Shown here one piece after another: positions 8,240 to 59,082 of a DNA stretch of 62,057 bases. Under the pieces are notes generated by a model. The model saw only the letters and a list, made by a program, of their open reading frames with translations, was not told where the DNA came from and searched no databases. Numbering within the stretch: the first letter of the stretch is position 1; every line of letters begins with the position of its first letter. Where the stretch lies: IMG/VR virus record IMGVR_UViG_3300032285_002448, positions 1 through 62,057 of that record; one strand, 5' to 3'. This stretch comes from a virus. The position numbers and the translations under genes are program-made.

Positions 8240-8758
8240 ATGGATACTCTAGTTTTAAACACGGACGGAAGCCCAGTGTCAATGCTTCCACTTAGCGCAA
8301 TCAATTGGCAAGAAGCCATAAAATACATGGTCTTAGACAAGGCCCATGTGTTAGAGTGGCACGAAGATTGGATTGTGAGATCAGCTCGCTGGGAAACTCG
8401 CGTGCCTGCCGTAATTATGGTAAAAGAATACATGAAGAAGAAATCTGGCATTCGTTATTCAAAACAGAATGTATTTCTTCGCGATGGGTACACATGTCAA
8501 TACTGCGGCACCGATGTAAACCGCCGTACTGCTACTCTAGACCATTTGATCCCTGTTTCTAAGGGCGGAAAGTCAGTGTGGGAAAACGCTGTTTGTGCTT
8601 GTTCTAAGTGTAACAGTCACAAAGGCAATAAATCTGGGTTCAAGCCAAGAAAAATGCCTCACAAGCCTAGCTATTATGAATTAGTGGAAAGACGCAAGCA
8701 GTTTGAATTCCACTTGGCACATCCTAGCTGGGGTCCTTACCTAGGTTTAGAGAGCTAA
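8240..8758 (+). CDS. HNH endonuclease
   Basis: A 172-residue protein from the ATG at 8240 (MDTLVLNTDGSP). An earlier in-frame ATG at 8192 lies inside the promoter and is rejected. The HNH fold is clear: a CQYCG zinc knuckle, then DHLIPVSKGG with the catalytic His, WENAVCACSKCN with the Asn and second Cys pair, and a final His in SHKGNK. The N-terminal half (INWQEAIKYMVLDKAHVLEW) matches the common bacterial/phage HNH family related to McrA-type nucleases. It could be a free-standing homing nuclease or a nuclease used in DNA metabolism. Its 3' end overlaps the convergent epimerase gene by 35 bases. Confidence 0.9.
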   Translation: MDTLVLNTDGSPVSMLPLSAINWQEAIKYMVLDKAHVLEWHEDWIVRSARWETRVPAVIMVKEYMKKKSGIRYSKQNVFLRDGYTCQYCGTDVNRRTATLDHLIPVSKGGKSVWENAVCACSKCNSHKGNKSGFKPRKMPHKPSYYELVERRKQFEFHLAHPSWGPYLGLES

Positions 8759-9554
8759 TCCAATCTGGAAGTAGCGTTGTAGCAGACCATCCAAGTAATT
8801 CTTTTGCTTGGGTGGTATCCGCACAAGTTTCTTTAGCATAGCCCAATAACTCTTGCTCTGTAATAATTGGGCAGTTAAACAAGGGTGCAATTTCAGCCAG
8901 GCTCCAACTTTGACCTGTGCCTAGATCTATAGTAGTGTAAGGCGGAGCTTTATCTACTGCTAGAATTAATGCTCGGGCAACATCATCAACGTGAACAAAG
9001 TCCCTACGCTGTTGTCCATTACCACGAACTAAGATTGGTTTGCCGTTTAAGGCTGAGTGTAGCCAATTGCCTATTACTAATCCGTTGTCTCCGTATGGAG
9101 CATCTTCTCCATAGCAGGTAAAGATACGACAAATAGTATAACGTAGACCCATTGAACGACTATAGGCTTCTATCACTTGCTCGCCAGACTGCTTTGTCCA
9201 GCTGTAGGGATTGAGCGGACCTGTGCCATCACCGTAGACTGAGCTAGAACTGGCAAACACTAGGTGTACTCCAAATGTAGCACATGACTGAGCAATGTAT
9301 TCAGTTAATTCAATATTGTCTTTGATATAAGCTGAAGGCGATCCCCAACTTGTAGGAATTCTAGGACGAGCCGCAAGATGTATAACTGCATCAGCATCAG
9401 TTAAGGCGTATTGGAACTCCCGTCTGCCCTCTGGACTATTAAGGTCGTAGTTGCTTCTACGATCAAAGCCGTAGTATCCAATATCTGATTTATCAAGCTG
9501 TTGGCAAACATGTCGCCCAATCCAGCCATCGCTTCCTGTTACTATTATATTCAT
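8724..9554 (-). CDS. NAD-dependent sugar epimerase/dehydratase
   Basis: A 276-residue extended short-chain dehydrogenase. It has an N-terminal Rossmann motif (TGSDGWIG, residues 6-13), an IHLAARP strand, Ser residues at 102-105 (SSSSVYG) and the catalytic YxxxK pair Tyr117/Lys121 (YSWTK). [11 protein letters not shown] is typical of UDP-glucose 4-epimerase/dTDP-glucose dehydratase-like enzymes. It probably makes a nucleotide sugar in the host cytoplasm for the window's glycosyltransferases; the sugar is unknown. It overlaps the IF-1 gene by 4 bases (ATGA), so it is co-translated with it. Confidence 0.88.
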
Positions 9555-24826: not shown

Positions 24827-24881
24827 GTCACAAAAGCGTCTTAAAGCGTTAGCAAAACAAGATCCATTTATATACAAATGA
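24780..24881 (+). CDS. 33-residue basic small ORF coupled to the carbamoyltransferase
   Basis: An ATG at 24780 opens a 33-codon frame that ends in an ATGA overlap with the carbamoyltransferase start at 24878. The peptide is strongly basic and aromatic: KKLLKILMTPWQWYKSQKRL, then KALAKQDPFIYK. The first 46 bases overlap the preceding gene in another frame. The basic amphipathic character and translational coupling suggest a real micro-protein rather than chance, but I cannot name a function. It could also be a leader peptide. Confidence 0.5.
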   Translation: MKKLLKILMTPWQWYKSQKRLKALAKQDPFIYK

Positions 24882-26368
24882 TTACTTGGGGGATATCAGC
24901 TAACAGTCATAATGCGGCCGTTGCCGTGTTTGCTGACGAACATCTGATATTTGCTTCAGAGACAGAACGCTGGAGCGGAATTAAAAACGATCCTAATCTT
25001 AATAAAGATCTAATCTACTATCTAAACTCTCGCAACCTTACTCCTGATCGTGTAGTTTGGTACGAAAAGCCTTTGCTGAAAACATTTAGACAACTTGAAG
25101 CAGGCCAAGGCTGGCGCTATCGAGAAAACAATATCAAAAAATATTTAAAAGAGTATCTACCAAGTACACCTATAAAGTATATAAGCCATCACAAAAGCCA
25201 TGCGGCTGGTGGGTACTGTACCAGCGGGTTTGATCAAGCCTGCATACTTGTAATAGATGCTATTGGAGAATACGAAACACTTACCATATGGAGTGGGGAA
25301 GGTAGTAAGTTAACTAAACTATACAGCTTAGAGTATCCAAACAGCATAGGACTTTGGTATAGCGCAATGACACAGCGATGTGGGTTGGCGCCAAACGAAG
25401 AAGAGTATATCCTAATGGGCATGGCCGCATACGGCGACCCTAAGAAATACTTTAATAGAATATTATCAGACTTCTTTAGTTTCCCCGATGATGAATGGAA
25501 TCATATTTTTCGTTTGAAAGAAAACCTACATCGTGGATGCAGGTCATGGGCACTGGAACTTAGCACAGAGCAAGATTTATTTGACATCGCAGCCGCAACA
25601 CAAGCAGTGTACGAAACAGTATTTGAACGTGTTCTACAGTACGCTACAAAATTATCATCAAGCCGTAATTTAGTATTCATGGGCGGATGTGCGTTAAACT
25701 GTGTAGCAAACAAACTAACTGGCAAGTATTTTGATAATACATGGATAATGCCAGCGCCGGGCGATAGTGGTAGTGCTATTGGTGCGGTATATGCATCAAA
25801 GCCGCATTGGCGAATGCAACCGTATGAATTCACTCCATTGCTTGGATACGAGATGCGTGGAAATGCAAACAACTACGAAATTGTATCTTATCTAGAAAAG
25901 AATCAGATATGCGGCGTTGCTAGAGGTCAAGCAGAATTTGGGCCACGTGCATTAGGTAACAGAAGCCTGCTTGCAGATCCACGTGGTAATGATATAAAGG
26001 AAAAAGTAAATGCAATTAAACAACGACAACAATTTAGACCATTCGCTCCCGCAATTTTGGAGGAGTTATGTGACACTTACTTTGATATGCCTAGCGGTTG
26101 GAATAACAGTAGGTATATGCAAGTCGTCGCTCGTTGTAGGGTTCCTTACTTATTTCCTGCTATCGTTCATGCTGACGGGACTTCTCGTGTTCAAACTGTC
26201 CCAAAAGATGGAAGCAAGTTTAGAGAACTCTTAGAACTATGGTATGCTCGGACAGGATGTCCTATGTTGCTGAATACCAGCTTGAACATTAAAGGCAAGC
26301 CAATGGTAAACAGTAGGGATGATGCGTTAGATTTTCAAAACACTTACAATATTAAAGTGTTTACGTAG
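24878..26368 (+). CDS. NodU/CmcH-family carbamoyltransferase
   Basis: A 496-residue O-carbamoyltransferase. The N-terminal Kae1-like domain has SANSHNAAVAVF, HHKSHAAGG (metal/adenylate site) and MGGCALNCVAN. The C-terminal YrdC-like domain has AEFGPRALGNRSLLADPRG and LNTSLN. These enzymes transfer a carbamoyl group from carbamoyl phosphate to a hydroxyl of a sugar, antibiotic or other small molecule, using ATP. The ATG overlaps the small-ORF stop. It follows four glycosyltransferase-like genes, so a carbamoylated sugar is a reasonable inference. The end overlaps the convergent gene by 8 bases. Confidence 0.93.
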   Translation: MITWGISANSHNAAVAVFADEHLIFASETERWSGIKNDPNLNKDLIYYLNSRNLTPDRVVWYEKPLLKTFRQLEAGQGWRYRENNIKKYLKEYLPSTPIKYISHHKSHAAGGYCTSGFDQACILVIDAIGEYETLTIWSGEGSKLTKLYSLEYPNSIGLWYSAMTQRCGLAPNEEEYILMGMAAYGDPKKYFNRILSDFFSFPDDEWNHIFRLKENLHRGCRSWALELSTEQDLFDIAAATQAVYETVFERVLQYATKLSSSRNLVFMGGCALNCVANKLTGKYFDNTWIMPAPGDSGSAIGAVYASKPHWRMQPYEFTPLLGYEMRGNANNYEIVSYLEKNQICGVARGQAEFGPRALGNRSLLADPRGNDIKEKVNAIKQRQQFRPFAPAILEELCDTYFDMPSGWNNSRYMQVVARCRVPYLFPAIVHADGTSRVQTVPKDGSKFRELLELWYARTGCPMLLNTSLNIKGKPMVNSRDDALDFQNTYNIKVFT

Positions 26369-41980: not shown

Positions 41981-42703
41981 ATGCAACTAGATGATATAGA
42001 TATTCCATTTAATGGAAATTGGAACAGTATAGCGATTAGCCTTAGTGGCGGTGCTGATTCTGCATTGTTAGCGTATGTATTATGCGAACAAGCTGAACGT
42101 TACGGAGTCAACGTACATGTCATTAATCATATTAGAATGTGGAAGACACGCCCTTGGCAACAAGAGGATGCTCGTAAAGTTTATGAATATCTAACAAAGA
42201 AATTTTCTAAAGTATCATTCACGTTTCATCAAAACTTTATTGCACCAGACATAGAATACGGAAATATTGGGCCTACTATAAAAGACGAGTACGATAAACT
42301 GGTCAGTGGAGACAATATACAGATAAGAGCATTTGCAGAATTTGTGTGTCACAAACACGATGTTGATGCCTACTACAATGCTGTAACTCGAAACCCTAGA
42401 GAAATAGACTTAGGCGGAATGAAAGAACGAGACATTGAACTAGACAAGACTAATGCACACTTACAATTAATGACTCACATGGGTAGGTTAGTAAGTCATC
42501 CTTTTAGATTTGTAGATAAAGGATGGATTGTTAGCCAATACAAACAATTAGATATAATGGATCTGTTTAATATTACTCGCAGTTGCGAAGGTGAATTTGA
42601 CGGATGCGATTACACAAACTATTATGCAGGACAACGTGTTCCGGCATGCGGCGAGTGCTTCTGGTGCAAAGAAAGAGCTTGGGCAATTGAACAAAACAAG
42701 TAA
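41981..42703 (+). CDS. PP-loop ATP pyrophosphatase, QueC-like
   Basis: A 240-residue PP-loop enzyme with the ATP-binding SGGADS motif (residues 22-27, ISLSGGADSALLAY). A C-terminal cluster of cysteines (SCEGEFDGCDY, PACGECFWCKERAWAI) resembles the zinc site of QueC, the 7-cyano-7-deazaguanine synthase. No QueD, QueE or FolE partner is recognised in the window. It may therefore act on another carboxylate, or partners may lie outside. AAGGA precedes the ATG, and the next radical SAM gene begins inside its 3' end. Confidence 0.72.
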   Translation: MQLDDIDIPFNGNWNSIAISLSGGADSALLAYVLCEQAERYGVNVHVINHIRMWKTRPWQQEDARKVYEYLTKKFSKVSFTFHQNFIAPDIEYGNIGPTIKDEYDKLVSGDNIQIRAFAEFVCHKHDVDAYYNAVTRNPREIDLGGMKERDIELDKTNAHLQLMTHMGRLVSHPFRFVDKGWIVSQYKQLDIMDLFNITRSCEGEFDGCDYTNYYAGQRVPACGECFWCKERAWAIEQNK

Positions 42704-43940
42704 AACATTTTGTATGCATCCTTTTACAGGATTGGCTACTAGAGAAGATGGGGCTGTTAAAGCCTGCTGTCGTAGCCACCCTGTTGGTTATATACAGGAT
42801 AGTTCATTAGAAGAAATCTGGAATAATAGTACAATGCAACGTATACGCAAGCAGGTGCTCAACGATGACCGTCCTCCGGAGTGCGCTCCGTGCTTTGCAT
42901 TAGAAGATCAAGGTGTTGAAAGTCTGCGCCAAAGACATATCAAAGGTGAAATACCAGAAGCACGTATAAATCTATATCCTAACACACCTTTGCAAGAAGT
43001 AATGCCATTTGAGTTTCCTACAATGGAAATTAAACTCAATAACCTTTGCAATCTTAAATGCCGCATGTGCAATCCAACAGATAGTACAAGTTGGAATGAT
43101 TGGGAACAAGTAGAAGAGTTTTACGATAAAGAAAATAATTTTATTGCAGATAATGTTCGTAAACTTAATCTAGTTAGAAAACCCTACTTAGATAAGTTTG
43201 AAGATAATCCTAACTGGTGGGCAAGTTTTGAAAAGCTATTGCCTTACTTCCGTCGTGTAGAATTTGCTGGTGGTGAACCTTTAATGGACCCTCAACATTT
43301 TCGCATACTAGATATGCTTAAACCCTACGGACATCAAATAGAATTAAAGTATGCTACTAATGGCACAACATTAGGAATTTCAAAAGGAAGAACTGTACAT
43401 GAATACTGGCCTCATTTTAGAAGCGTTGCCGTTAACGTCAGCATTGACGGCCTTGGCGATGTTTACGACTACATTCGTGGTAACAGCAATTGGAGTCAGG
43501 TTGTTGCAAATATTAAAGAAATACAAACAATCCCAAACGTTACAAGAATAGTAGGAGCAGTTGCTGTTCAAGTTAGTAATGTATTGATATTAGATAAAAT
43601 GATAGAATACTTTTTAAACGAGTTGGGTATTGTATTTTATACCAACATGGTAAACTATCCAAATGTATTGTCAATACAAGTATTACCGCAAAAACTTAAA
43701 ATGGATGCTATTATAAAACTTGCAGGTGTTTATAATAGAATAGGAGATTTTGAATTAGTTAAGAAACATCCTATGCTGTTAAACCTTACACAGAATCAAA
43801 TAATGGGTGTGCTTAACTATCTAAAAGCAAACGATCAAAGCGACAAGTGGCAAGACTGCGTAGAGTTTAATCGTAGATTAGATACTACTCGTGATCAAAG
43901 TTTTATAGACGTAACTCCAGAGTTTAAAAAATATGTTTAA
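42687..43940 (+). CDS. Twitch-type radical SAM protein B1
   Basis: A ~417-residue radical SAM enzyme with Cys121, Cys125 and Cys128 (CNLKCRMC) and FAGGEPLMD. The N-terminal module (KTFCMHPFTGLATREDG, then CC at 27-28 and CAPC) is shared with 46575-47873 and 53590-54948 and probably binds a further metal cluster or zinc. The start is unsure. The family usually opens MSKTFC; here TSKTFC is preceded by a TTG at 42687, while the upstream ATG at 42591 overlaps the PP-loop gene by 113 bases. The substrate is unknown; it is followed by a partner-like gene. Confidence 0.82.
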   Translation: MNKTSKTFCMHPFTGLATREDGAVKACCRSHPVGYIQDSSLEEIWNNSTMQRIRKQVLNDDRPPECAPCFALEDQGVESLRQRHIKGEIPEARINLYPNTPLQEVMPFEFPTMEIKLNNLCNLKCRMCNPTDSTSWNDWEQVEEFYDKENNFIADNVRKLNLVRKPYLDKFEDNPNWWASFEKLLPYFRRVEFAGGEPLMDPQHFRILDMLKPYGHQIELKYATNGTTLGISKGRTVHEYWPHFRSVAVNVSIDGLGDVYDYIRGNSNWSQVVANIKEIQTIPNVTRIVGAVAVQVSNVLILDKMIEYFLNELGIVFYTNMVNYPNVLSIQVLPQKLKMDAIIKLAGVYNRIGDFELVKKHPMLLNLTQNQIMGVLNYLKANDQSDKWQDCVEFNRRLDTTRDQSFIDVTPEFKKYV

Positions 43941-45640: not shown

Positions 45641-46578
45641 CACCCTTGTAGTTTACAAATAGTAGGCTGTATTTTAGGATTAAATGTTGTTTTAAAATCC
45701 TGATCGTATATGTTGAACTTAGTGTCCAAACCATATAACGATTGTCCGCAAGATCCAGATAGTTCACCAGTTGGATTAATATAAAACATATCAATACCTA
45801 CATTACACTTCCAACCGTAAAAGTGGTTCCAATCATTTAGTTGTACTTGATTGTGTTTTACCTTTTTACTTTTACCGTTATCAAACTGTACAACACTACG
45901 ATTAATATTAAAGTTTTTTCGTTGATTAAACGCATACCATATACTTGGATATCGTTTTATAGAATTAGACAAGAACTCCAATTGCTCAGGAGTATATAAG
46001 TTTGCTCCATCTGCTTCCTCAATTTTTTGTGTGCCTATGTACCATTTACGTCTGCTGTTTGATTTAAAATAATCAATCATAGACGCACATTCATCCCATG
46101 CAAACGGATCCATACATACACTCACATCTACGTAAACACCTGTGTCGTATAATGTATCTGCAACTAACGTAAAATGGGGAAGATCAATCTGTTTATAATG
46201 TGCGGATAGATTTACCTTATCAAATACTTGTGCGTTCTCTTGCCACCATCGGATTGTTCTGGATCCGTTAGATTGTACACTGGCAATAAAATTGTATCTA
46301 TCCTTCAGTTGAGAAATAAACTTATCTAGCTCTGGCCACAATGTTGGTTCGCCGCCAAGTATCTGTAATTCAATTTGATCTTTACCAGATTTTATATACT
46401 GATCGAACAGGTGTGAAAAGTTATCTACAACTAACTTTAGGTCTTTTGGCCAACTGTATCTTCCTGCATTTGAACCAGGAAAACAATATCTGCATTTATA
46501 GTTACAAACATCAGTAGGACTATAACTTATTTTTACAAAATTGCTAGGCTGATTTGATACTACAGCTATTGGAATCAT
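45571..46578 (-). CDS. Radical SAM protein C2 with SPASM-like cysteines
   Basis: A 335-residue enzyme with Cys25, Cys29 and Cys32 (CNYKCRYC) and LGGEPTLW. The C-terminal Cys series (WKCNVGIDM, GSCGQS, ICKLQGCYC) is like that of C1 and C3. It ends LLTKTLVNGISAAQVQ, very similar to the C1 tail LTKVLVNKVSGVQ on the opposite strand. It overlaps the B2 gene by 4 bases (ATGA). The reaction is unknown. Confidence 0.85.
   Translation of the reverse strand: MIPIAVVSNQPSNFVKISYSPTDVCNYKCRYCFPGSNAGRYSWPKDLKLVVDNFSHLFDQYIKSGKDQIELQILGGEPTLWPELDKFISQLKDRYNFIASVQSNGSRTIRWWQENAQVFDKVNLSAHYKQIDLPHFTLVADTLYDTGVYVDVSVCMDPFAWDECASMIDYFKSNSRRKWYIGTQKIEEADGANLYTPEQLEFLSNSIKRYPSIWYAFNQRKNFNINRSVVQFDNGKSKKVKHNQVQLNDWNHFYGWKCNVGIDMFYINPTGELSGSCGQSLYGLDTKFNIYDQDFKTTFNPKIQPTICKLQGCYCTPETLLTKTLVNGISAAQVQ
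45599..45618. other. Near-palindrome coding for LTKxLVN on both strands
   Basis: A 20-base inverted repeat with one mismatch in nine arm pairs (arms TTAACTAAA and TTTAGTCAA) lies in the overlap of two convergent radical SAM genes. Read on either strand it encodes part of the conserved C-terminal LTKxLVN. It could also act as a bidirectional termination or pausing hairpin, but there is no clean U-run on either side. Confidence 0.6.
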
Positions 46579-47873
46579 AAGTCTTTTAACTCCGGAAACA
46601 CTTGTCTAAAGTCTGTACCGCGCTGTTCATCGGTAACAGTTAGATAGTCATACAATAAAGGTAGTTTATTGGACCAATCTTCTGCCATCATATATTGCAC
46701 TAATCCTTGCCAGCGTTTGTATCCATAGGGGTTCTGCATAAATTCTGTATCATTGCTTCTTCTAGAACAGAAGTACTCTATGCTCTTTATTACTTTTGCT
46801 TTTAGATGCTGAGGCAGTACTCTAACATTTAGATAGCTTGGCAAGTATACAAGATGTGTGCCAACAAGTCCTGCGCCATAAGGAGGTAGATTAATCTTTT
46901 TAAAGTTTTTACTTTCCTTCCAATGCACAAGTTCTGGTACATTCATTACGTTTAATAACTGTACGGCACATGCAATATTAACTGTAATGTTATTAGGTGT
47001 ATCATCAAGGCGCTCTAAGTTGGCAACAACATCTGCCCATTTACTAGGGTAGCGTATGTAATCATTGCGTGTACCCACAGCGTCAACACTAAAGTTAAAT
47101 TTAACTTCTTTGAAATGCTTCCATAGTTCAAATAACTTTTCTGGCAATTCTAGGCCGTTGCTGTTGTAACGTAAAATACAAGACTTTGCCGCACCTGTTT
47201 CTACCATAAACTCTAATATCTTATAGTGCTCGGGTATCAATAATGGTTCGCCGCCTGCAAAGTATAGCTCACGAATATTATATGATTGACTACGCATATC
47301 ATTTAAGAAACTACCTTTCTTATACCACGTATAATCAAAGTCACTATTCCATTGTTGATCTTGTTGCAGTTCAATAGTCTTATACTTAGGATACTGTAGT
47401 TTCCATTCCTTGATCCAACTGCTACTGTCATGCGGGCTACACATAACGCATTTGAGTTGACACAGATTACCTAAGCGTAAATCAAAGTACGGAATGTCTA
47501 CAGGCAAACTACCATCCTCACCTGTAGCATCAACAATGGTTGCAACGTCTAAACGCTCGTTCCATACTGCTGATTCCCACTGGCGCTTGCTCACAATACC
47601 TTTAGACTCTTCTTCAAAGCATTTGGTACAGCTAGGAGGGATCTTGCCTTCTAACATTTGTAAGCGCACGGTCCGCATGTAATTACTATTCCACACTTCA
47701 GCAATAGAATGTGTTTGTAGATTCATTACTTGCCCATTTTGTTTTACTAACCCAACTTCTTTGCTATCTTCATCGCCTGCACCGCTGGCATTGGCAGTAC
47801 AACACACACGCACATCGCCGTTAGGACGAGTCGCTAGATGTATCCACGGTAATGGGCAGAATGTTTTACTCAT
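46575..47873 (-). CDS. Twitch-type radical SAM protein B2
   Basis: A 432-residue protein with Cys138, Cys142 and Cys145 (CQLKCVMC) and FAGGEPLLI. The N-terminal module has Cys6 (SKTFCPLPWIHLATRPNG), Cys24/25 and Cys82/85 (SCTKC). It is a paralogue of B1 and B3. The module is reminiscent of the extra metal site in twitch-domain radical SAM proteins of phages, whose substrates are unknown. It overlaps genes on both sides by 4 and 8 bases. Confidence 0.87.
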   Translation of the reverse strand: MSKTFCPLPWIHLATRPNGDVRVCCTANASGAGDEDSKEVGLVKQNGQVMNLQTHSIAEVWNSNYMRTVRLQMLEGKIPPSCTKCFEEESKGIVSKRQWESAVWNERLDVATIVDATGEDGSLPVDIPYFDLRLGNLCQLKCVMCSPHDSSSWIKEWKLQYPKYKTIELQQDQQWNSDFDYTWYKKGSFLNDMRSQSYNIRELYFAGGEPLLIPEHYKILEFMVETGAAKSCILRYNSNGLELPEKLFELWKHFKEVKFNFSVDAVGTRNDYIRYPSKWADVVANLERLDDTPNNITVNIACAVQLLNVMNVPELVHWKESKNFKKINLPPYGAGLVGTHLVYLPSYLNVRVLPQHLKAKVIKSIEYFCSRRSNDTEFMQNPYGYKRWQGLVQYMMAEDWSNKLPLLYDYLTVTDEQRGTDFRQVFPELKDL

Positions 47874-48939
47874 TGACTACTTGATCTCTTGATTTTGCAA
47901 AGTTACTTGTAGGAGCTCTGCCACACATCCTAGCACAAGTTATTAAACTACGTTCATTCCAGTAATTAAACCATAACTGTTGATAGCTATCTGAATCAAC
48001 AATATCCTTTACTGTATTTGTTACAGCATTTAATTTGTCAATACCACCAAATGATTCTACAATATCGTGATACTGTGATAGCATTTCATATCTTACAGAA
48101 GCCGCATCATTTTCATCTATGTATGTATAAGGAGAACTTGCTATCCAGCAACAAGGAAATACATTTTTAAATGCATCTATATAGATTTCTTTTTGATTTA
48201 ATGCTTGACAATCAATAACCGATTCAGCCATTATCTTTTTATAAGAATTGATTACCTGTTTGTCAATAAATTTCAAGGGAGTATCTGTTGCTGGTTCTAT
48301 TATATGTGTAACGTTTCCGGACTTATCCAATACATCAACTTTAGGTTCTAGCATAAATCTTGAACTATTTTTCATAACAAAAGTTGCAAATCCTAATTCT
48401 TTACTCAACTGTCTAGCTTGTTCTACTTGATCTTGATTGTGTTTGAATCTAATAAAACACCACTCAGCAGTTCCGCCTGCTTCTATAAATGCTTTGGCAT
48501 TTTTTAAGATAGTATTAAAGTTAGTACCTATACGATATATGCTATGAGTGTCGTCAAGACCATCTAGAGCAAATACTACATTATGTGTTTTAGGTAATGC
48601 TCCTGCTAATTCTTTCCACCAGCTGACGGGTCTTGCACTTCCGTTAGTGTGTACACGAATATTAAGAGAAGGATTAACTTCAGTAGAATACCTACACATA
48701 TCAATCAAATCTTTGTTGAGTATAGGGTCTCCAAAATTGCCACAAAAGAAAAATCCGTCAAGCTGATTCAGAACTTCTGGACTCATGATAGTTTTGTATT
48801 CTTCTAGAGTCCAATCGTTCAAACGTATCAACGGATTTTCTAAGCCGCCATTTCGATTCCGCGCACACATAGGACAACTGGCTTGACAGTTATTTGTAAT
48901 TTCTAAATGCGCTTGCTGAAGCTGATCAAATTTAAACAC
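47866..48939 (-). CDS. Radical SAM protein D
   Basis: A 357-residue enzyme with Cys18, Cys22 and Cys25 (CQASCPMC), near the N-terminus as in the common SPASM family. CGNFGDP stands where GGEP is expected. The C-terminal Cys residues (FPCCWIAS, CARMCGR) resemble an auxiliary-cluster site. The start is GTG at 48939, sharing one base with the stop of the APS kinase gene (TAGTG), so translation is coupled. Of the nine radical SAM proteins its layout is the most like known peptide-modifying SPASM enzymes, but that is inference. Confidence 0.83.
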   Translation of the reverse strand: MFKFDQLQQAHLEITNNCQASCPMCARNRNGGLENPLIRLNDWTLEEYKTIMSPEVLNQLDGFFFCGNFGDPILNKDLIDMCRYSTEVNPSLNIRVHTNGSARPVSWWKELAGALPKTHNVVFALDGLDDTHSIYRIGTNFNTILKNAKAFIEAGGTAEWCFIRFKHNQDQVEQARQLSKELGFATFVMKNSSRFMLEPKVDVLDKSGNVTHIIEPATDTPLKFIDKQVINSYKKIMAESVIDCQALNQKEIYIDAFKNVFPCCWIASSPYTYIDENDAASVRYEMLSQYHDIVESFGGIDKLNAVTNTVKDIVDSDSYQQLWFNYWNERSLITCARMCGRAPTSNFAKSRDQVVNE

Positions 48940-49730
48940 TATTTTAATCCTAGCTCTTTACGGATCTTAGTAGCACTTATATCAGTAATTGTTTCGTCAA
49001 ACGTTTCTTCGCCAGCAGTATAGCCTACACCACGTCCCCAACCAATATGCACAATGTTAGGAACAACTTGTATTTCATACTGTCCTTGATACAACGGATC
49101 CAAATCACGCTTGATAAAGCTCTTTACTTTTTCTACTTCAAACGGGTTACTACCTTGCCATCCTTGTACATCACGCACTTGAATAATAACTTGTCCAGTC
49201 TTGGATAGAAGTCTTTCAAACAATGCCCGATGTCCATCATGCCATGGTTGCCACCGCCCTAACATTTGTACAGTTTCTTTCTTCCAATCAAATGTAGGAC
49301 GTCTACGATTATCAATAATATGGTCAGCAATAAAGTCTGCCCATTTTTCAGCATCTTGTTCTGTGATACGGAAGTCGTACAGTTCAGGCTCTTGGAACAT
49401 AGCATTAGTATCAGCATATCGACCTTCACGAATAGTATCTACCCAGATAGTCCAGTCTGCTTTAAAGTTGTTACGCATTTCAACTAAGGGAGCAACAAAG
49501 TCAGCAATGGCATAGTCGCACTCTAATCTATCTGCAAGCTCACGCATACGCTTACTTTGGCGAATACGTCCTGCTTCACTAAAGTCCCAGTCATCATACT
49601 CTGCACGAACACGATCAGCATTGAGCCACACAAGTTTTTTATCGTGTGCTTCTAGTCTATTCTTCAATGCTTCTGCTAGAGTTGTTTTGCCAGAGCCCGG
49701 CAATCCCATAATTAAAATACGCTGTGTCAT
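48939..49730 (-). CDS. APS kinase fused to a nucleotidyltransferase-like domain
   Basis: A 263-residue fusion from the ATG at 49730, which shares an ATGA with the DUF2061 gene and follows GGGAG. Residues 1-145 are an APS kinase/P-loop domain: GLPGSGKT (9-16), LNADRVR and TIWVDT. Residues 153-263 are a HxGH-type nucleotidyltransferase (His164-His167 in WHDGH, ISATKIR near the end), like ATP sulfurylase, NadR-type or cytidylyltransferase domains. APS kinase makes PAPS, the donor for the sulfotransferase at 39508-40101. A sugar-nucleotide or sulfate-activation role is inferred. Confidence 0.82.
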   Translation of the reverse strand: MTQRILIMGLPGSGKTTLAEALKNRLEAHDKKLVWLNADRVRAEYDDWDFSEAGRIRQSKRMRELADRLECDYAIADFVAPLVEMRNNFKADWTIWVDTIREGRYADTNAMFQEPELYDFRITEQDAEKWADFIADHIIDNRRRPTFDWKKETVQMLGRWQPWHDGHRALFERLLSKTGQVIIQVRDVQGWQGSNPFEVEKVKSFIKRDLDPLYQGQYEIQVVPNIVHIGWGRGVGYTAGEETFDETITDISATKIRKELGLK

Positions 49731-49903
49731 GTTTTCTCCCAAAATTTTTCATGTATATAATATAAGATAGTATTAGCTATCATTTGTACTATAGCGATTC
49801 CGCTAGATGCTACCAGTTGGCCTGTTATAGCATAACTGATAATAAAAGTTGATAGTGACCCAATCAACCTCCATGTTAACGTTTTAATGATTATCCTAGG
49901 CAT
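49727..49903 (-). CDS. DUF2061 small membrane protein
   Basis: A 58-residue protein. KTLTWRLIGSLSTFIISYAI, VQMIANTILYYIHE and KFW match the DUF2061 family, which has two transmembrane helices with a TWR motif near the N-terminus. It overlaps the methyltransferase-like gene by 8 bases and the APS kinase fusion by 4 (ATGA). AGGA precedes the ATG. DUF2061 proteins often stand beside sulfate-activation or sulfur genes, which supports the fusion's assignment. The role is not known. Confidence 0.85.
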   Translation of the reverse strand: MPRIIIKTLTWRLIGSLSTFIISYAITGQLVASSGIAIVQMIANTILYYIHEKFWEKT

Positions 49904-51445: not shown

Positions 51446-52339
51446 TTATTTTCTTTCGTTGATGCTGTCATACAATAACTTTGCTATCACTGCATGCCCT
51501 TTTCTTGTAGGATGACAACAGTTGGTTATGTACTCTGAAGGTTTATCTAAATTGATATAGTGCTTCCACCAACCTCCAAAAATAAGATCTGGGTTATTTT
51601 CTAATTTCAAAAGCTCTTGTAGGAACGTTTCAGATCCATTAGGGTATATATAGTTAGACCAATCTACTCTATCGATTAAATTTTTGTTGTCTTTTTCTAG
51701 GGCAGGAATTAAACCGCATAAGGTCCTCATTAGCCAAGTTCTATTGGCTCGTAAATCAAATGCGCTTGCAAGGAAAAATTTATATCCGTGCGCTTTGCAG
51801 TACGTTTGAACTTCTAATATAGATAACAAAAGTTCTACAGCAATAAATCGTTCTGAGTAAATGTGGGTAGCATAGGCTTTCCATAGCTCGTAATTAGTAG
51901 CAGTTGGATCATTATAGTTAGGCCACATGGCTTCAAAGCTATAGTGTCCTGACTTATCTTTAGCACCCCAGTCTTTGTTAACAAAATCAAACCTTTCTAA
52001 TCCAGTCATCAAGAATACAACAATCACTTCGTTAGATTCATCTATTGTTAGTCTATTGTTAAGATACAGTTGTTTAACACAACCTCTATTGCCTATTCCT
52101 GCGTGTCCCATATTAACGGGAACATAATCTGTTAGATAATTATCACACAGTTGTTTTACCCAACTGCCTTCATATTGCTCGGCTATTAGTTTTTTATCGA
52201 ATGTAAACCCATCAATCTTGTTGTTATATTTTTTCCAAATAGCGTCTGTATATGCTCCTACACCTTGTGTGAAACTATCGCCTAATCCAATAAGAACTTT
52301 GTCGCCTTTTTTAATTTTAGGAACGTGTTCATGAAACAT
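51446..52339 (-). CDS. SGNH/GDSL hydrolase-like protein
   Basis: A 297-residue protein. GLGDSFTQG (Ser22) is the nucleophile block I, GHAGIGNRG gives a Gly and Asn of blocks II-III, and HPTRKGHAVIA is the C-terminal His block. It would act as an esterase, lipase or acetyl-esterase on a carbohydrate or lipid. No signal peptide is seen, so it works in the cytoplasm, or on the virion. It overlaps the upstream glycosyltransferase-like gene by 11 bases. Confidence 0.8.
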   Translation of the reverse strand: MFHEHVPKIKKGDKVLIGLGDSFTQGVGAYTDAIWKKYNNKIDGFTFDKKLIAEQYEGSWVKQLCDNYLTDYVPVNMGHAGIGNRGCVKQLYLNNRLTIDESNEVIVVFLMTGLERFDFVNKDWGAKDKSGHYSFEAMWPNYNDPTATNYELWKAYATHIYSERFIAVELLLSILEVQTYCKAHGYKFFLASAFDLRANRTWLMRTLCGLIPALEKDNKNLIDRVDWSNYIYPNGSETFLQELLKLENNPDLIFGGWWKHYINLDKPSEYITNCCHPTRKGHAVIAKLLYDSINERK

Positions 52340-53597
52340 TAAAATAATCCTTACAGTAATTTAACAACTCAACAGATCCTAAAGTCCTAATATCTTTTCT
52401 AGAATGAAAATGATTATAGTTGTGTTCTAGTATTTCACGCATACCCATAAACCACTCTAATTTATTTTCTATTGAATCTATTCTTTTTAATTCGTTTATG
52501 ATAGCTGTCATTCTATCATGTGATGACATGCTATCGTATCTTTCATCAATAAACCCCTCAAATGTGCGGTATCCCATATCTCGTAGTGCTTGTAGGCTGT
52601 GTCGTCCTCCTAATATAATAAAAGGATGCATACAAGCAATAGATTTAAAAGTTTTTTCGCTAATAAACACAGCACGGTCTTCGTCATTAAAGATAGGCTC
52701 ACTTACAACGCTTACCCAGCTGTCTTTATACACTTGTTCGTATATTCTGTCTATATAATATCCGTCGCCAAATTGTGTATTTGATTGTCCGTATATTTCT
52801 AAAGGCAGTATAGATCTTGCTTGTTGTAACAAGTCGTTATCTGGCATTCTTCCGTCAATCATACCAACGTGCATATCTCCCCAATCATTTGTACTAATCA
52901 GTCCCTTATCTATTAAGTTAGATTTATACATCTGACCAAGAAACCATATCCTATGAGTTCTTAATCTTTTCTGTAGGCAACTAAACGTTTTAATCTCGTT
53001 GTTCTTTTTATATTCAATATTAGTATTCCAATCTTGGAACAACTGAGTATCTCGTGCTATTTGCATCACTGCAAACTCAAAGTGCGCATAGCCAATAGTT
53101 TTTAATTTGTCAGTGATGCCATTTTGATTAGCCCAACTATCGTAGTCTGCGCCTGTATTCCAATTGCCTGTTACATACACTACAGATTTAGGAGGAATAC
53201 TGTACTTGATAAACTGTTCATGAAACCATTCCCACAACCAAGAAATATGATATCCTTCCAGTCCTTGATCTAATAATAGTAATGCACGACCTTCTTGTAA
53301 ATCTTTTAGATAGATAGGACTAATCCAATCAAACAGGTTAGATCGACCTCTGCCTCGTGTCCAATCAACTGGATGGTGCCTTACTCCTACAGGTATTACA
53401 TAATTGTCTGGTCTATTTTTTACACTAAAGATATTGGTAGGACATATTACATAATTTTTAGAATCATAATGTCTAGTTGTTTCAGCCAGTACACTAGGAT
53501 GAAAGCGACTAAGACCAGATGGATTGTTCTCTTTGCATTCAATAAAGTTTAACTTATCATCTAATGTATGGCTTTGCTCATATACCCAATTAATCAT
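52329..53597 (-). CDS. Conserved glycosyltransferase-like protein (EKTFKSIA family), copy 1
   Basis: A ~422-residue protein from the ATG at 53597. A start at 53732 would overlap the radical SAM gene by 143 bases. The C-terminal block EKTFKSIACMHPFIILGG followed by RDMGYRTFEGFIDERYD is shared with 57898-59082 (EKTFKAIACNRPFISYG, RRMGFKTFEGLIDESYD). The E-K-T-(x)-K-P pattern looks like the donor-binding region of some GT-B enzymes such as exostosin-like proteins. The substrate is unknown. Confidence 0.6.
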   Translation of the reverse strand: MINWVYEQSHTLDDKLNFIECKENNPSGLSRFHPSVLAETTRHYDSKNYVICPTNIFSVKNRPDNYVIPVGVRHHPVDWTRGRGRSNLFDWISPIYLKDLQEGRALLLLDQGLEGYHISWLWEWFHEQFIKYSIPPKSVVYVTGNWNTGADYDSWANQNGITDKLKTIGYAHFEFAVMQIARDTQLFQDWNTNIEYKKNNEIKTFSCLQKRLRTHRIWFLGQMYKSNLIDKGLISTNDWGDMHVGMIDGRMPDNDLLQQARSILPLEIYGQSNTQFGDGYYIDRIYEQVYKDSWVSVVSEPIFNDEDRAVFISEKTFKSIACMHPFIILGGRHSLQALRDMGYRTFEGFIDERYDSMSSHDRMTAIINELKRIDSIENKLEWFMGMREILEHNYNHFHSRKDIRTLGSVELLNYCKDYFNVS

Positions 53598-54948
53598 GTA
53601 GCGATCGGCAATCTTCGAAGAATTTAATGAGCTCTGGGAAAGTATTATAGAATGACGTACGGCGTCTTTTATCATATTCCGTAAACCAACTATAAAAATC
53701 TTTACGACCCTCAATAAGTCTATCTTGATCATAATTTGTGTTCCTCATATATTCAACAACACGACTAAACTTTTCACACTCTAGCGCAGAGAATTTATTT
53801 TTGTGCATATACTCTAAAGAGGTCTCCATGTAAGGCATAAAATCTTCCTTAGGTAGCAAATTCATATCGTATTGCAATGGTTCTTTTAGATAGGGTGTAT
53901 CAAATCTTATACGTTGTTTTGTACTAAACCAGCCGTTATATTTTCTACGCCATTGTTTTATCTTAACTAATAATGAACTAAAATTTGTAACTGTTAAGAT
54001 GTTAAATGTACACATGAAAGTTATAGGCTGTTTAGTTTTAGTTAGATACGTGTGCAAGTTCTTTTCCCAAACTGCAATATCTAATCCTGTGCGTATATAC
54101 TCTGCAGGTTCTCCCCACGTGTCAATGCTGGTAAACAATTTAAAGTGTTTGATCTTGTTTTCTTTTAACAGTCTGTTGACTTTTTCCACAAGCCTTTCAA
54201 TAAGGATTGGTTTGACTCCAAGATTGCTATTAAGATTAAGCTCGAGATTAGGTTTAGGATTATCGTACAGATCATCTAACAGTTTCCATGTTGATTGTTG
54301 CAATAACGGTTCTCCGCCTGTAATGCGTAAGATGTTTAGAGTCTTACTAACTTCAGGCCACCACTTCCACCATGCTTCAACATATGGATTAGTTTCTTCT
54401 TCGTATAGATGCAGATAGTCGATATCATTACGATGATTCTTAACCATTGTATAAGGACCAAAGTCTTTGATCTCTTTGTAGTATGCAGAGCTGTGCTTTG
54501 GATGGCAATATCCGCATTTAAAATTACATTCATTACCAAAACTGATCTCAATGTATTCTGGATTGACAGGAGCTAGAGGATTGGTCTTTATAGCTCCTAG
54601 ACGTTCTTCGTTATATATGCTGGCATTGCGTTCGTGACGATCGCTAATATGCTCGCCTGGCAATGCTTCAATGTTCCAGCAGTATTGGCAACCGCCAGGC
54701 TTTTGTCCATCTAGCATCTGTTGACGCTCTGCTGTCTTTTGTGGAGTATTGTGTAATACGCTAGGATCTTCCTTTAACAAGTCCAAAGGAATAGCATGCG
54801 GCCGTGGATGATAGCAACTGTGTGTTTGACCACTCTGTAGATATATTGTAGTATGATGCCACTTAGCCAAACAGAACGTAGGACTTATTTCATTGACTAT
54901 CGGTATTACTTTTTGAATACGACTAATTTCGCTCAATGTCTGCCTCAC
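53590..54948 (-). CDS. Twitch-type radical SAM protein B3
   Basis: A 452-residue protein with Cys141, Cys145 and Cys148 (CNFKCGYC) and ITGGEPLLQ. The N-terminal module has Cys26 (SPTFCLAKW), Cys45 and Cys87/90 (GCQYC), as in B1 and B2. The start is not certain: a GTG at 54948, a TTG at 54963 and a TTG at 54936 are all in frame. I chose the GTG. It overlaps the cytidylyltransferase-like gene by 26 bases. Together with B1 and B2 it defines one radical SAM type with a variable C-terminus. Confidence 0.85.
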   Translation of the reverse strand: MRQTLSEISRIQKVIPIVNEISPTFCLAKWHHTTIYLQSGQTHSCYHPRPHAIPLDLLKEDPSVLHNTPQKTAERQQMLDGQKPGGCQYCWNIEALPGEHISDRHERNASIYNEERLGAIKTNPLAPVNPEYIEISFGNECNFKCGYCHPKHSSAYYKEIKDFGPYTMVKNHRNDIDYLHLYEEETNPYVEAWWKWWPEVSKTLNILRITGGEPLLQQSTWKLLDDLYDNPKPNLELNLNSNLGVKPILIERLVEKVNRLLKENKIKHFKLFTSIDTWGEPAEYIRTGLDIAVWEKNLHTYLTKTKQPITFMCTFNILTVTNFSSLLVKIKQWRRKYNGWFSTKQRIRFDTPYLKEPLQYDMNLLPKEDFMPYMETSLEYMHKNKFSALECEKFSRVVEYMRNTNYDQDRLIEGRKDFYSWFTEYDKRRRTSFYNTFPELIKFFEDCRSLHD

Positions 54949-55672
54949 TACAGTTAGTTCCAAACTGTATTTCTACAATGCGGCATGACACATCAAAGGG
55001 GTTGTGTAACTGATGCCATTGGTTGACTGATATCTCAATACCGTCATGTTTGTTTAACGTTAGATTATGCATGTCTAGTCTTTTAACTTCGCATGCGCCT
55101 TCTGTAACTAACCAAAACTCTGTTCTATGCTGATGTCTTTGCATTGATAAAGATTGCTTTGGTTCAATTGTTAATTCCTTTACCTTAGTGCCCGGTACTT
55201 CGTGTAGCACTCGATAATATCCCCAAGGGCGTTCTGTCTTAGGTGCCTTCCACTCATCAAGTATCCAACTAGAACTATTAACTTTGTTATCCCCGCCTAC
55301 TCCAAAGACAAACTCTAAATTCAAATACTTTTTTAGTAGATCCATTTCTGGGATATTGTCTTTGGTTCTATCACCACCGTTAGCAAATACAATATCGTGA
55401 TTAGGAAATATTTCTCTAGCTTTACGAATAGCATCTTTAGCAGAGTTGTCATCGTCATTAAAACTAATAACACGATCAACTACATGCATAGCACTGATGA
55501 TAGTTGCACGTTCTTCCCAAGGCATAAATGCACGGCCTTTTTTACGCTCTAGCCAACTATCACTATTAAGGCCAACAACCAGTTTATCTCCTAGCTCTCG
55601 AGCAGAGTTAAAGTATGCAATGTGTCCGGAATGGAGAGGGTCAAAACCCCCAGTAACTAAAACTATTTTCAT
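54923..55672 (-). CDS. Nucleotidyltransferase (RfaE2-like)/cupin fusion
   Basis: A 249-residue fusion. Residues 1-140: HxGH nucleotidyltransferase with GGFDPLHSGHIAY (His14-His17) and the RTKDNIPE block of RfaE2/cytidylyltransferases. Residues 145-249: cupin of the mannose-6-phosphate isomerase type II kind, with ERPWGYYRVL, LSMQRHQHRTEFWLVTEG and its metal-binding His pair, and WHQLHNP. The two domains could couple activation and isomerisation of a sugar phosphate in the cytoplasm. It ends overlapping B3. It probably supplies sugars for the glycosyltransferases. Confidence 0.85.
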   Translation of the reverse strand: MKIVLVTGGFDPLHSGHIAYFNSARELGDKLVVGLNSDSWLERKKGRAFMPWEERATIISAMHVVDRVISFNDDDNSAKDAIRKAREIFPNHDIVFANGGDRTKDNIPEMDLLKKYLNLEFVFGVGGDNKVNSSSWILDEWKAPKTERPWGYYRVLHEVPGTKVKELTIEPKQSLSMQRHQHRTEFWLVTEGACEVKRLDMHNLTLNKHDGIEISVNQWHQLHNPFDVSCRIVEIQFGTNCSEADIERN

Positions 55673-57157: not shown

Positions 57158-57901
57158 TTATCTTTCGTTGCGATTGTCAAACGGCATTTTGGTTTGTTCA
57201 TCCCACCAATATAAACTGCGGTGTGGATTACTTATAGGTGTAGAGTTACTGCTGTAATAAAACAGTCGCAAGTTTTCTCGTTGCTGATCTGTAGGGCATG
57301 CTAACGGAGTAGGGTATCCGTGTATAAGTCGTTCGTCATAGTCCCATATGATTAGTCTATTAGGTATAGGGTACGTTTTTACCAAACACTCTGTGCGTTC
57401 AAAGTCCCAAAACTCTAGTGCGCCATTCCATTGTTCATCCCATTTGGGATTCAAATATAGGATAGCACTACAACTGCGATTTAGATGTAGTTGTTCGTTC
57501 CAATTAAAGTCTGTGTGCAGATTAAGAAAGTGTCCATTACTGCATGTTGATAAACCTGCTCCTACTAATTTAGGATCGCTTATGATACGATCTTTTCCAG
57601 TTAGTGCTTCCAGCCAATTAAGGAACACTCCGCTATTAAAACAATGTGTCAGTGTTTGTATTGTAGGAGCAGATGAGAATATCTTACACTCACGCATAAG
57701 ACTGCCCTTGCGTGTAAAGTTAGTCCATTGATAATCCGGTATCTGTGCAATTTCACTTTGAGCTTGTGTTAGAATATCTTTAGGCAAAAAGTCATCTATT
57801 ACCAAATAAGGCACAGGCTCTTTTTGAATGTAGTCTAAGTGATACTCTTTTGGATTATACTTTAGATACAGATTGTTAAAGTAATCATACAAAGATTTCA
57901 T
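57158..57901 (-). CDS. Prolyl-4-hydroxylase-like 2OG-Fe(II) oxygenase
   Basis: A 247-residue protein of the P4Hc type. LNLHTDFNW gives His129 and Asp131, RLIIWDYDERLIHGYPTPL gives His194, and NLRLFYYS gives Arg212, all in the usual order. GHFL before the HxD and LYLNP...WNGALEFW complete the fold. This is the clearest 2OG oxygenase of the window. It overlaps the upstream transferase-like gene in an ATGA, so the two may act in one pathway. The target is unknown. Confidence 0.9.
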   Translation of the reverse strand: MKSLYDYFNNLYLKYNPKEYHLDYIQKEPVPYLVIDDFLPKDILTQAQSEIAQIPDYQWTNFTRKGSLMRECKIFSSAPTIQTLTHCFNSGVFLNWLEALTGKDRIISDPKLVGAGLSTCSNGHFLNLHTDFNWNEQLHLNRSCSAILYLNPKWDEQWNGALEFWDFERTECLVKTYPIPNRLIIWDYDERLIHGYPTPLACPTDQQRENLRLFYYSSNSTPISNPHRSLYWWDEQTKMPFDNRNER

Positions 57902-59082
57902 CGCTGTGTCTCTAGTTCAAATGCATCTGATAGCCACGTAAACTTAGGAAAGTTATTGTTAGTCCATTCTGCATTAGTTTGCAGGGTTTTTAGCATTGAC
58001 AAGTTGTATTCAGCAATCTCTTTACAGTCAGCAATTAAACTGTCATAAGCATCTTTGTCCAATGCGGCAATACGTGTTATCTCAGCGATCACTGCCCTAT
58101 GTCTTGTTTCGTTATCTACGATAGTGTCGTAACTTTCATCTATTAATCCCTCAAATGTTTTAAAGCCCATTCTTCTAATACATGCAAGGGTATAAGGAAC
58201 ACCATATGAAATAAACGGCCTATTACAAGCTATGGCCTTAAATGTTTTTTCAGTTAAGAATATAGGTTGAAACTTGGAATCATATGCTCGGCTACGAACA
58301 TATTCGTTTGGGTTGAACTGACTTTCTATTATAATGTTAATGTCTGCTTGTTGTATAGCCCTGTAGGTTGCCATATGGAATTTTAAATCCACTCGTGCAT
58401 CTAGATCGTAAGGTATTCCATTAATCCAAGAGTTTAATGGTTCCTGTGCAGTATCTATACCGTAGTTGAATAGATCCATACGCAATTCTGATAAAGGAAA
58501 TTTCTTAATAATGCCGTATGGAAATATATTGTGAAATGTAAACACAAAGTCTTTGATCAAATTATCATTTACTAAATTGGCAAAGAATCTAAGACGCCAG
58601 GGCCTGTAATTACGGCTAAGGCAACTGAACTTGTGTGTAGTTGCGGTATCTTCTTTAGGTATGTTAGTAGCTATCACGCTGTAGTAAGTAGAAGCAATGT
58701 TAACACCGGTTATACCTAGCTCAGCCAATCCATTACGCAAAAATTCTGCGTGTTCGTCATCTACTACAATTACAAACACTCTGTCTAAATCTAGATCTAG
58801 TGATACAATGCATGATGCTAGACTGTTGACAAATCTTTTGTCAAATGTTTCGTTACAATTCTCATAAACAAAACGGGTAGTTTTATCCAATTTAAAATGA
58901 TGCCAGTGTTCTTCTTCAAGACACCTAGCCATTGATACTTGCCCATTTAGCAAATCGTATAGTTGATAGTAGTAAACAGTATTGGGCTCAAACTTACACT
59001 CTCTTAAGGGTCTAATGTGTCTTAGGTTAAATTTGGAGTGCGGTATCTTGCCCGTTTTAGAATATATTTTGAGTTGGCTCAT
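57898..59082 (-). CDS. Conserved glycosyltransferase-like protein (EKTFKSIA family), copy 2
   Basis: A 394-residue paralogue of 52329-53597. It shares EKTFKAIACNRPFISYG, RRMGFKTFEGLIDESYD and the HRAVIAEITRIA region after it. The N-terminal half differs, so the acceptor may differ. The domain looks like a GT-B donor-binding half, but the assignment is tentative. It overlaps the oxygenase gene by 4 bases. A TTTAAATA octamer lies 7 bases before the ATG. Confidence 0.6.
   Translation of the reverse strand: MSQLKIYSKTGKIPHSKFNLRHIRPLRECKFEPNTVYYYQLYDLLNGQVSMARCLEEEHWHHFKLDKTTRFVYENCNETFDKRFVNSLASCIVSLDLDLDRVFVIVVDDEHAEFLRNGLAELGITGVNIASTYYSVIATNIPKEDTATTHKFSCLSRNYRPWRLRFFANLVNDNLIKDFVFTFHNIFPYGIIKKFPLSELRMDLFNYGIDTAQEPLNSWINGIPYDLDARVDLKFHMATYRAIQQADINIIIESQFNPNEYVRSRAYDSKFQPIFLTEKTFKAIACNRPFISYGVPYTLACIRRMGFKTFEGLIDESYDTIVDNETRHRAVIAEITRIAALDKDAYDSLIADCKEIAEYNLSMLKTLQTNAEWTNNNFPKFTWLSDAFELETQR

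What the first reader, a model, noticed from the sequence alone, without database searches (positions are those of the whole stretch)
54923..55672. RfaE2-like nucleotidyltransferase fused to a type II mannose-6-phosphate isomerase cupin
Seen: HSGH and a cupin with PWGYYRVL, HQHRTEF in one 249-residue protein. Inference: a compact sugar-nucleotide synthesis unit for the glycosyltransferases at 21-25 and 52-60 kb. I know the domains as separate enzymes or joined in GDP-mannose pyrophosphorylases, but not in this pairing.
Basis: partly seen in the sequence, partly recalled or inferred. Interest (0 to 1): 0.55.

Follow-up and report, generated by a model that had tools for sequence, protein, structure and literature searches.

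The report
Phage sugar-activating isomerase-nucleotidyltransferase fusion
This phage gene joins a sugar-phosphate isomerase to a nucleotide-attaching enzyme, a pairing that turns out to be common in uncultured phages and in the ocean bacteria SAR11 and SAR86, where it may be the enzyme that makes activated mannose.

Summary
In detail: one 249-aa minus-strand ORF (54923-55672) holds a HIGH-family nucleotidyltransferase (NT) and a type II mannose-6-phosphate isomerase (PMI) cupin. The pairing is not peculiar to this phage: the 80 best IMG/VR relatives kept by the search (60-71% identical) all carry it in one frame, as do 41 of 43 bacterial loci (48-53%), mostly SAR86 and SAR11. No annotated phage or plasmid record matches it whole. 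Key residues of both halves are invariant in 121 aligned rows; the cupin keeps residues of E. coli ManC and folds like Thermococcus PMI. Of 40 fusion-bearing genomes, 0 show a type I PMI and 2 a ManC-type guanylyltransferase, yet 18 encode GDP-mannose 4,6-dehydratase; in 17 of these no other PMI-cupin match exceeds 26 bits. Against this, 2 of 4 SAR11 genomes without a detected fusion also carry the dehydratase; both also lack polA, the fusion's neighbour, so assembly gaps are likely. Best reading: a working counterpart of ManC/AlgA whose NT half comes from an unrelated superfamily, GDP-mannose being the likeliest product. In phages it probably feeds glycan synthesis; a GT8-like gene follows it in 27 of 80 loci. 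Substrate and nucleotide are unproved.

The parts
54923..55672 (-). CDS of the NT-cupin fusion protein, 249 aa
55247..55672 (-). HIGH-family nucleotidyltransferase domain, residues about 1-142
   Evidence: Pfam PF01467, PHROG 7878, TIGR02199 below cut-off; fold like 1coz and HldC 5xf2
55622..55633 (-). HSGH motif, residues 14-17 (H14 and H17 identical in 121 of 121 rows)
55265..55279 (-). NSSSW motif, residues 132-136, identical in 121 of 121 rows; sits about where the STT motif of RfaE2/TagD would be (placed by eye, motif recalled)
54926..55246 (-). type II mannose-6-phosphate isomerase cupin, residues about 143-249; ends right after D-I-E-R, without the tail of ManC and of the SAR11 copies
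   Evidence: PF01050 3e-23; Thermococcus PMI Z 17.2; tails
55112..55141 (-). QxHxxRxExW motif, residues 178-187; Q178, H180, R183, E185, W187 invariant and shared with E. coli ManC
55013..55015 (-). H220, invariant histidine of the cupin, also in E. coli ManC
53590..54963 (-). radical SAM-like gene downstream of the fusion (context); relatives at E<1e-30 in 11 of the 80 viral loci
   Evidence: PF04055 25.4 bits, below its cut-off of 29.5; PHROG 14086 1e-9
52329..53732 (-). GT-B-like glycosyltransferase candidate (context), paralogue of 57898-59082
   Evidence: model pLDDT 63.9; top fold matches mostly GT-B enzymes; no Pfam match
57898..59082 (-). paralogue of the GT-B-like candidate (context)
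   Evidence: no Pfam match
8724..9554 (-). NAD-dependent sugar epimerase/dehydratase (context)
   Evidence: PF01370 9e-48

Best explanation
A bifunctional sugar-nucleotide enzyme that works like ManC/AlgA. The C-terminal cupin isomerises fructose-6-phosphate to mannose-6-phosphate, a host phosphomannomutase makes mannose-1-phosphate, and the N-terminal HIGH-family domain transfers a nucleotide to it, most likely giving GDP-mannose. As in ManC, first and last steps of one pathway sit in one chain with the NT first and the PMI last, but the NT domain belongs to a superfamily unrelated to that of ManC. The phage would use the product for glycans made by its own or host glycosyltransferases. Shown: family and fold of both halves, invariance of key residues, distribution, and gaps in host genomes. 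Inferred: both activities, the sugar, the nucleotide and the phage use.
For: Cupin: PF01050 matched in 66 of 66 members of A1; best structural matches are Thermococcus phosphomannose isomerases, Z 17.2, rmsd 1.4-1.5, next CapF at 16.0; Q, H, R, E, W, H, N, E, G, E, D and R positions shared with E. coli ManC and invariant in 121 rows. NT: fold of TagD 1coz (Z 15.9, 30% identity) and HldC 5xf2 (Z 14.6, 26%). Missing-enzyme argument over 40 fusion-bearing genomes: type I PMI 0 of 40; ManC-type guanylyltransferase domain 2 of 40, G036 and G010; gmd over cut-off 18 of 40, G036 among them; in the other 17 no PF01050 match besides the fusion exceeds 26 bits. A strong GDP-fucose synthase match lies in the same fetched stretch as gmd in 8 of 20 stretches. 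In two gmd-bearing genomes, G040 and G026, each of the 3 PF00483 matches is GalU or RmlA-like, GlmU or MurU-like. In SAR86 G040 and G037 the fusion lies about 13 kb from gmd. The four genomes with a strong heptose kinase keep a separate RfaE2. Phage context: gene of the GT8-like cluster directly downstream in 27 of 80 loci; GT25 and GT8-like domains fused in L009.
Against: No activity was measured. HIGH-family NTs that I know use ATP or CTP, not GTP (recalled). 22 of 40 fusion-bearing genomes show no gmd over the cut-off. In the SAR11 sample gmd over the cut-off is no commoner with the fusion (8 of 13) than without (2 of 4); one more without it scores 370 of 415 bits. In the two examined, polA and its neighbours are missing too, which points to assembly gaps; the third was not examined. 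One fusion-bearing genome (G022) has a second, stand-alone 116-aa PMI-type cupin (44 bits), and G008, G040 and G023 have weak partial PF01050 matches just over the cut-off. A MurU-like NT far below its cut-offs (110 of 370 bits in SAR11) could be the guanylyltransferase, and other genomes carry further PF00483 proteins that I did not classify. The second cupin histidine (H182) is not conserved. Phage copies lack the tail after D-I-E-R. Other PMI types (for example bifunctional PGI/PMI) and phosphomannomutase were not searched in the 40 genomes; some proteins scoring as gmd may use GDP-heptoses (recalled).
Confidence: 0.4

Rival explanations
1. NDP-manno-heptose enzyme. The NT acts on D-glycero-D-manno-heptose-1-phosphate, as its RfaE2/HldC kin do, and the cupin makes the heptose-7-phosphate from sedoheptulose-7-phosphate or supplies mannose-6-phosphate separately.
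For: The NT scores best against rfaE_dom_II among NCBIfam models. In SAR86 G040 the fusion lies in a locus with GmhA-like (158.7 of 209 bits), HddA-like (NF049969 273 of 600 bits) and GmhB (TIGR00213 166.6, over its cut-off of 149.6) genes, and the genome's three PF00483 proteins are not best explained as HddC.
Against: Heptose kinase TIGR02198 is strong (E<1e-90) in only 4 of 40 fusion-bearing genomes and gmhA (E<1e-25) in 11 of 40; the 4 have their own RfaE2. The TIGR02199 score is under half the cut-off.
Confidence: 0.2
2. The cupin is the PMI, but the NT serves another substrate (polyol phosphate, glycerol phosphate or other sugar phosphate); GDP-mannose is made by a MurU-like or unknown guanylyltransferase.
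For: PMI evidence as above; the NT fold is as near to glycerol-3-phosphate cytidylyltransferase; matches to the NT half alone, 53-57% identical, occur in 8 phage records, and in S-SSM7 the gene is shown to lack the cupin; SAR11 carries a MurU-like NT about 8 kb from the fusion in G012 and G026.
Against: The halves stay fused across phages and two bacterial phyla with the key residues invariant, which favours one pathway.
Confidence: 0.25
3. The cupin is a sugar-binding or regulatory domain without isomerase activity, and the protein is an ordinary nucleotidyltransferase.
For: H182 variable and C-terminal tail lost in phage copies.
Against: The other residues shared with ManC are invariant; in 38 of 40 genomes it is the only full PMI-type cupin and no type I PMI is found.
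Confidence: 0.1

Closest known systems
ManC/AlgA/CpsB, mannose-1-phosphate guanylyltransferase/mannose-6-phosphate isomerase (TIGR01479)
   Same: PMI cupin at the C-terminus behind an NT domain; cupin residues conserved; likely same pathway
   Different: NT half is a HIGH-family domain of ~140 aa, not the GT-A-like NT of ~350 aa; TIGR01479 matches only positions 359-460
HldE C-terminal domain / HldC (RfaE2), heptose-1-phosphate adenylyltransferase
   Same: NT fold, HxGH motif, Z 14.6 to 5xf2
   Different: below the family cut-off, NSSSW in place of STT (recalled motif), fused to a cupin, no strong heptose-kinase match in 36 of 40 fusion-bearing genomes
TagD glycerol-3-phosphate cytidylyltransferase
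   Same: NT fold, Z 15.9, 30% identity to 1coz
   Different: TIGR01518 51.5 bits against a cut-off of 165.4; fused cupin
Archaeal phosphomannose isomerase (7zvm, 7zvy)
   Same: cupin fold, best structural match by VIA-align
   Different: stand-alone protein; only 16-17% identity
NT gene SSSM7_186 of Synechococcus phage S-SSM7
   Same: 57% identical NT half with an NSSSW motif
   Different: no cupin in the same protein

Membership tests
ManC/AlgA bifunctional GMP-PMI (TIGR01479) | score over the curated cut-off, with both NT and PMI parts of the model matched | tested here: not met
   75.1 of 372.95 bits, only positions 359-460 matched
ManC/AlgA bifunctional GMP-PMI (TIGR01479) | type II PMI cupin at the C-terminus with the conserved QxHxxRxExW motif | tested here: met
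ManC/AlgA bifunctional GMP-PMI (TIGR01479) | guanylyltransferase and isomerase activity | not testable with these tools
   needs enzyme assay
RfaE2/HldC heptose-1-phosphate adenylyltransferase (TIGR02199) | score over the curated cut-off | tested here: not met
   78.7 of 181.5 bits
RfaE2/HldC heptose-1-phosphate adenylyltransferase (TIGR02199) | heptose kinase partner in the genomes that carry the fusion | tested here: not met
   strong TIGR02198 match in 4 of 40 fusion-bearing bacterial genomes, each with its own RfaE2; the host of this phage is unknown
Glycerol-3-phosphate cytidylyltransferase TagD (TIGR01518) | score over the curated cut-off | tested here: not met
   51.5 of 165.4 bits
HIGH nucleotidyltransferase superfamily (PF01467) | Pfam match over cut-off and HxGH motif | tested here: met
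   49.5 bits, cut-off 21; H14 and H17 invariant
Type II PMI cupin (PF01050) | Pfam match over cut-off | tested here: met
   82.7 bits, cut-off 23.6; 66 of 66 members of A1 match at E<=0.001

The most novel reading that the evidence does not exclude
A second, independently assembled GDP-mannose enzyme: a HIGH-superfamily nucleotidyltransferase that uses GTP and mannose-1-phosphate, fused to the same PMI cupin as ManC, has replaced both PMI and ManC in SAR11 and SAR86, and has been carried or exchanged on a large scale by aquatic phages.
Probability: 0.28. Interest if true: 0.75.

Novelty: new variant of a known kind. Interest (0 to 1): 0.5.

Why it matters
If right, it fills a gap in the metabolism of SAR11 and SAR86, which are among the most abundant ocean bacteria (general knowledge): they would make activated mannose with an enzyme that family models recognise only as two halves with other names. 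It would be a case of an NT domain swapped for an unrelated one beside the same isomerase, and would name part of the sugar chemistry that many uncultured phages bring to their hosts. It is testable with one purified protein.

Tried and rejected
ADP-heptose enzyme as the general role: rejected because 36 of 40 fusion-bearing genomes have no strong heptose-kinase match and the other 4 keep their own RfaE2. 38 of 40 do have some match at E<=0.001, which I take to be other sugar kinases.

The idea that the cupin replaces GmhA (heptose analogue of ManC): kept only as a rival; gmhA is strong (E<1e-25) in 11 of 40 genomes without an exclusive pattern.

Counter-test: SAR11 genomes without the fusion should lack gmd. 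It failed at face value: of 4 such genomes, 2 have gmd over the cut-off, 1 below it (370 of 415 bits), 1 none; of 13 with the fusion (one a contig-edge piece), 8 have it over the cut-off. Reading 1,057,267 bases of G043 (contigs C1-C18 but for about 3 kb) and 988,028 + 49,766 bases of G055 (contigs C1-C20) gave no tblastn hit at E 1e-4 to a SAR11 polA, the MFS gene or pckA, and no hit to E. coli ManC; in G055 the fusion query gave only two weak partial hits. So the fusion region seems missing from these assemblies. G052 was not examined; further contigs, if any, were not fetched.

Folds: Foldseek by E-value puts CapF of Staphylococcus aureus first, over poor whole-length superpositions (rmsd 16-20); its cupin alone scores Z 16.0 against 17.2 for the Thermococcus PMIs. 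For the neighbour 52329-53732 the GT-B matches are tied and the model is weak, so no donor sugar is claimed.

Rows dropped: L125 (frame broken, 14 stops in the matched stretch), L126 (cupin only) and L096 (second contig of G010, the genome of L093) from the genome counts, leaving 40 genomes; L122, L126 and L096 from the tree; L122 and L126 from the residue counts. Alignment A1 holds 66 rows: the window, 46 of the 80 viral and 19 of the 41 two-half bacterial loci. In the viral neighbour clustering 885 of 1226 ORFs were kept after removing overlaps.

Literature: searches showed no paper on this fusion (one search listed only 20 of 740 papers). Of PMC7993394 (HldC) I saw passages only; of all others only search listings. 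The library lacks most subscription journals, so the fusion may be described elsewhere.

Tree: the 19 SAR11 copies and the 18 SAR86-type copies (one of them labelled Porticoccaceae) each form one group on a long stem (100/100), with viral L053 beside the Neomarinimicrobiota and Rhodobacteraceae copies; the window has no starred near group; deep forks are weak and long branches meet, so no direction of transfer is claimed.

Full report
What is there. The ORF at 54923-55672 on the minus strand encodes 249 aa. Residues 6-106 match CTP_transf_like (6e-13) and 146-248 match MannoseP_isomer (3e-23), both over cut-off. Among named NCBIfam models the NT half scores best with RfaE domain II (78.7 bits, cut-off 181.5), then with HldE and TagD (51.5, cut-off 165.4); the cupin half matches only the PMI end of GMP_PMI (75.1 of 372.95). 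The window is a 62,057-base virus record.

How widespread. The scan of species genomes gave 43 loci: 41 hold both halves (one cut by a contig end), one is frame-broken, one is cupin only; most are labelled SAR86 or Pelagibacteraceae, with Neomarinimicrobiota, Rhodobacteraceae and Porticoccaceae. In a SAR11 family sample, 20 of 25 genomes have the full fusion and one a piece at a contig edge. In annotated collections no record holds 80% of it: 41 of 50,697 phage records and 398 of 72,556 plasmid records match part of it. A predicted viral protein, A0A218MKF4 (432 aa, 35% identity over 218 columns), probably holds both domains. The pairing is therefore common, but in uncultured phages and marine bacteria.

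Anatomy. In 121 aligned rows (window, 80 viral, 40 bacterial; not all distinct) D11, H14, H17, D38, K44, K45, E54, R55, GGDR 99-102, K130, NSSSW 132-136 of the NT and Q178, H180, R183, E185, W187, H220, N224, E234, G238, E243, D245, I246, R248 of the cupin are identical throughout. Cupin residues R, W, G, Q, H, R, E, W, H, N, E, G, E, D, R are shared with E. coli CpsB/ManC in a seven-row alignment. SAR11 copies keep a ManC-like tail after D-I-E-R; viral copies stop at or soon after it, except L009 and L048, which run on to 710 and 711 aa (GT25 over cut-off and a GT8 match below cut-off in L009). The AlphaFold model has mean pLDDT 91.9 and pTM 0.63, so domain folds are good and their mutual placement is not. 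The cupin's best structural matches are Thermococcus phosphomannose isomerases (Z 17.2, rmsd 1.4-1.5), then CapF (16.0); the NT's are TagD 1coz (15.9), 3glv (15.4), 2b7l (15.2) and HldC 5xf2 (14.6).

Context. Directly downstream on the same strand, a gene of a cluster whose representative L030 matches GT8 (31 bits, cut-off 24.3) is found in 27 of 80 viral loci, 72 of which have at least 700 bases there; a methyltransferase-like gene lies directly upstream in 17 and an epimerase-like gene in 8. In the window the neighbours are a radical SAM-like gene and an SGNH-like gene (both below Pfam cut-offs) and two paralogues (52329-53732, 57898-59082) without Pfam match. The first of these models at pLDDT 63.9 as GT-B-like; the best-ranked rows are nearly all GT-B enzymes and tied, fucosyltransferases among them. 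In the 19 SAR11 loci the fusion directly follows polA and precedes an MFS gene; in several SAR86 loci it lies between a transhydrogenase-like gene and gyrA (these neighbours named by my reading of the sequences); in SAR86 G040 and G037 it lies in a surface-sugar locus.

Function by elimination. Forty fusion-bearing genomes were searched. Type I PMI: 0 of 40, control genomes 7 of 14. ManC-type guanylyltransferase domain: 2 of 40, G036 and G010, control 12 of 14. PMI-type cupin other than the fusion: a full one in G036 (ManC) and a stand-alone 116-aa one in G022 (44 bits), with weak partial matches over the cut-off in G008, G040 and G023 (24-26 bits). GDP-mannose 4,6-dehydratase over cut-off: 18 of 40, G036 among them; the copy in G037 is interrupted by a stop. 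Thus 17 genomes encode an enzyme that, as known, consumes GDP-mannose, but show no type I PMI, no other PMI-cupin match above 26 bits and no ManC-type guanylyltransferase. BLAST of 20 gmd stretches (18 over the cut-off, 2 at about 392 of 415 bits) found ManC only in G036, besides a hit to the fusion itself in G037, and strong fcl-like genes in 8. In G040 and G026 all three PF00483 matches of each are GalU or RmlA-like, GlmU and MurU-like, the RmlA-like and MurU-like ones below their cut-offs; the PF00483 proteins of the other genomes were not classified. Genome completeness was not reported by the tool, and these are mostly single-cell or metagenome assemblies by title.

Tests that went against it. 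Fusion-lacking SAR11 genomes still carry gmd over the cut-off in 2 of 4, against 8 of 13 with the fusion. In those two, G043 and G055, nearly all contigs were read and polA, the MFS gene and pckA gave no hit either, so the simplest account is a gap; but this is a rescue, not a prediction met. 22 of 40 fusion-bearing genomes lack gmd over the cut-off. In G040/G037 the nearby GmhA-like, HddA-like and GmhB genes leave a manno-heptose nucleotide as an alternative product. The MurU-like protein is not excluded as a guanylyltransferase.

Conclusion. By membership it is neither ManC nor RfaE2 (defining scores not met); by likely working it resembles ManC. New variant of a known kind; no paper on it was found in the searches listed under Tried and rejected.

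Noticed in passing
window 12930-14186 (-): Tryptophan halogenase-like gene (PF04820, 1.4e-29) in the phage record.
   Followed up: no
window 29272-54963: About nine genes that look by eye like radical SAM proteins; 53590-54963 is related to 46575-47873 and 42591-43940. Purpose unknown.
   Followed up: partly
window 48939-49742 (-): A 267-aa protein with an APS-kinase/AAA-like N-terminus and a C-terminal stretch that looks by eye like a second HIGH-type nucleotidyltransferase.
   Followed up: no
window 24878-26368 (+): Carbamoyltransferase (PF16861, PF02543) beside unassigned genes that resemble each other in pairs.
   Followed up: no
L009 6001-8133, L048 4047-6182: Viral copies in which the fusion runs on to 710 and 711 aa; in L009 the extension matches GT25 and, below cut-off, GT8.
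   Followed up: partly
L093 7992-10280: Neomarinimicrobiota copy followed directly by a GT8-like gene (21.4 bits, below the cut-off of 24.3), as in phages; in the tree it groups with viral L053.
   Followed up: partly
L194 3415-4629: SAR11 404-aa protein that matches both PF00483 and a GmhB query: a likely HddC-GmhB type fusion.
   Followed up: no
L214, L215: SAR86 surface-sugar locus with PseF-like, HddA-like, GmhA-like and GmhB genes and the NT-cupin fusion; the HddA-like gene in L215 is in two pieces.
   Followed up: partly
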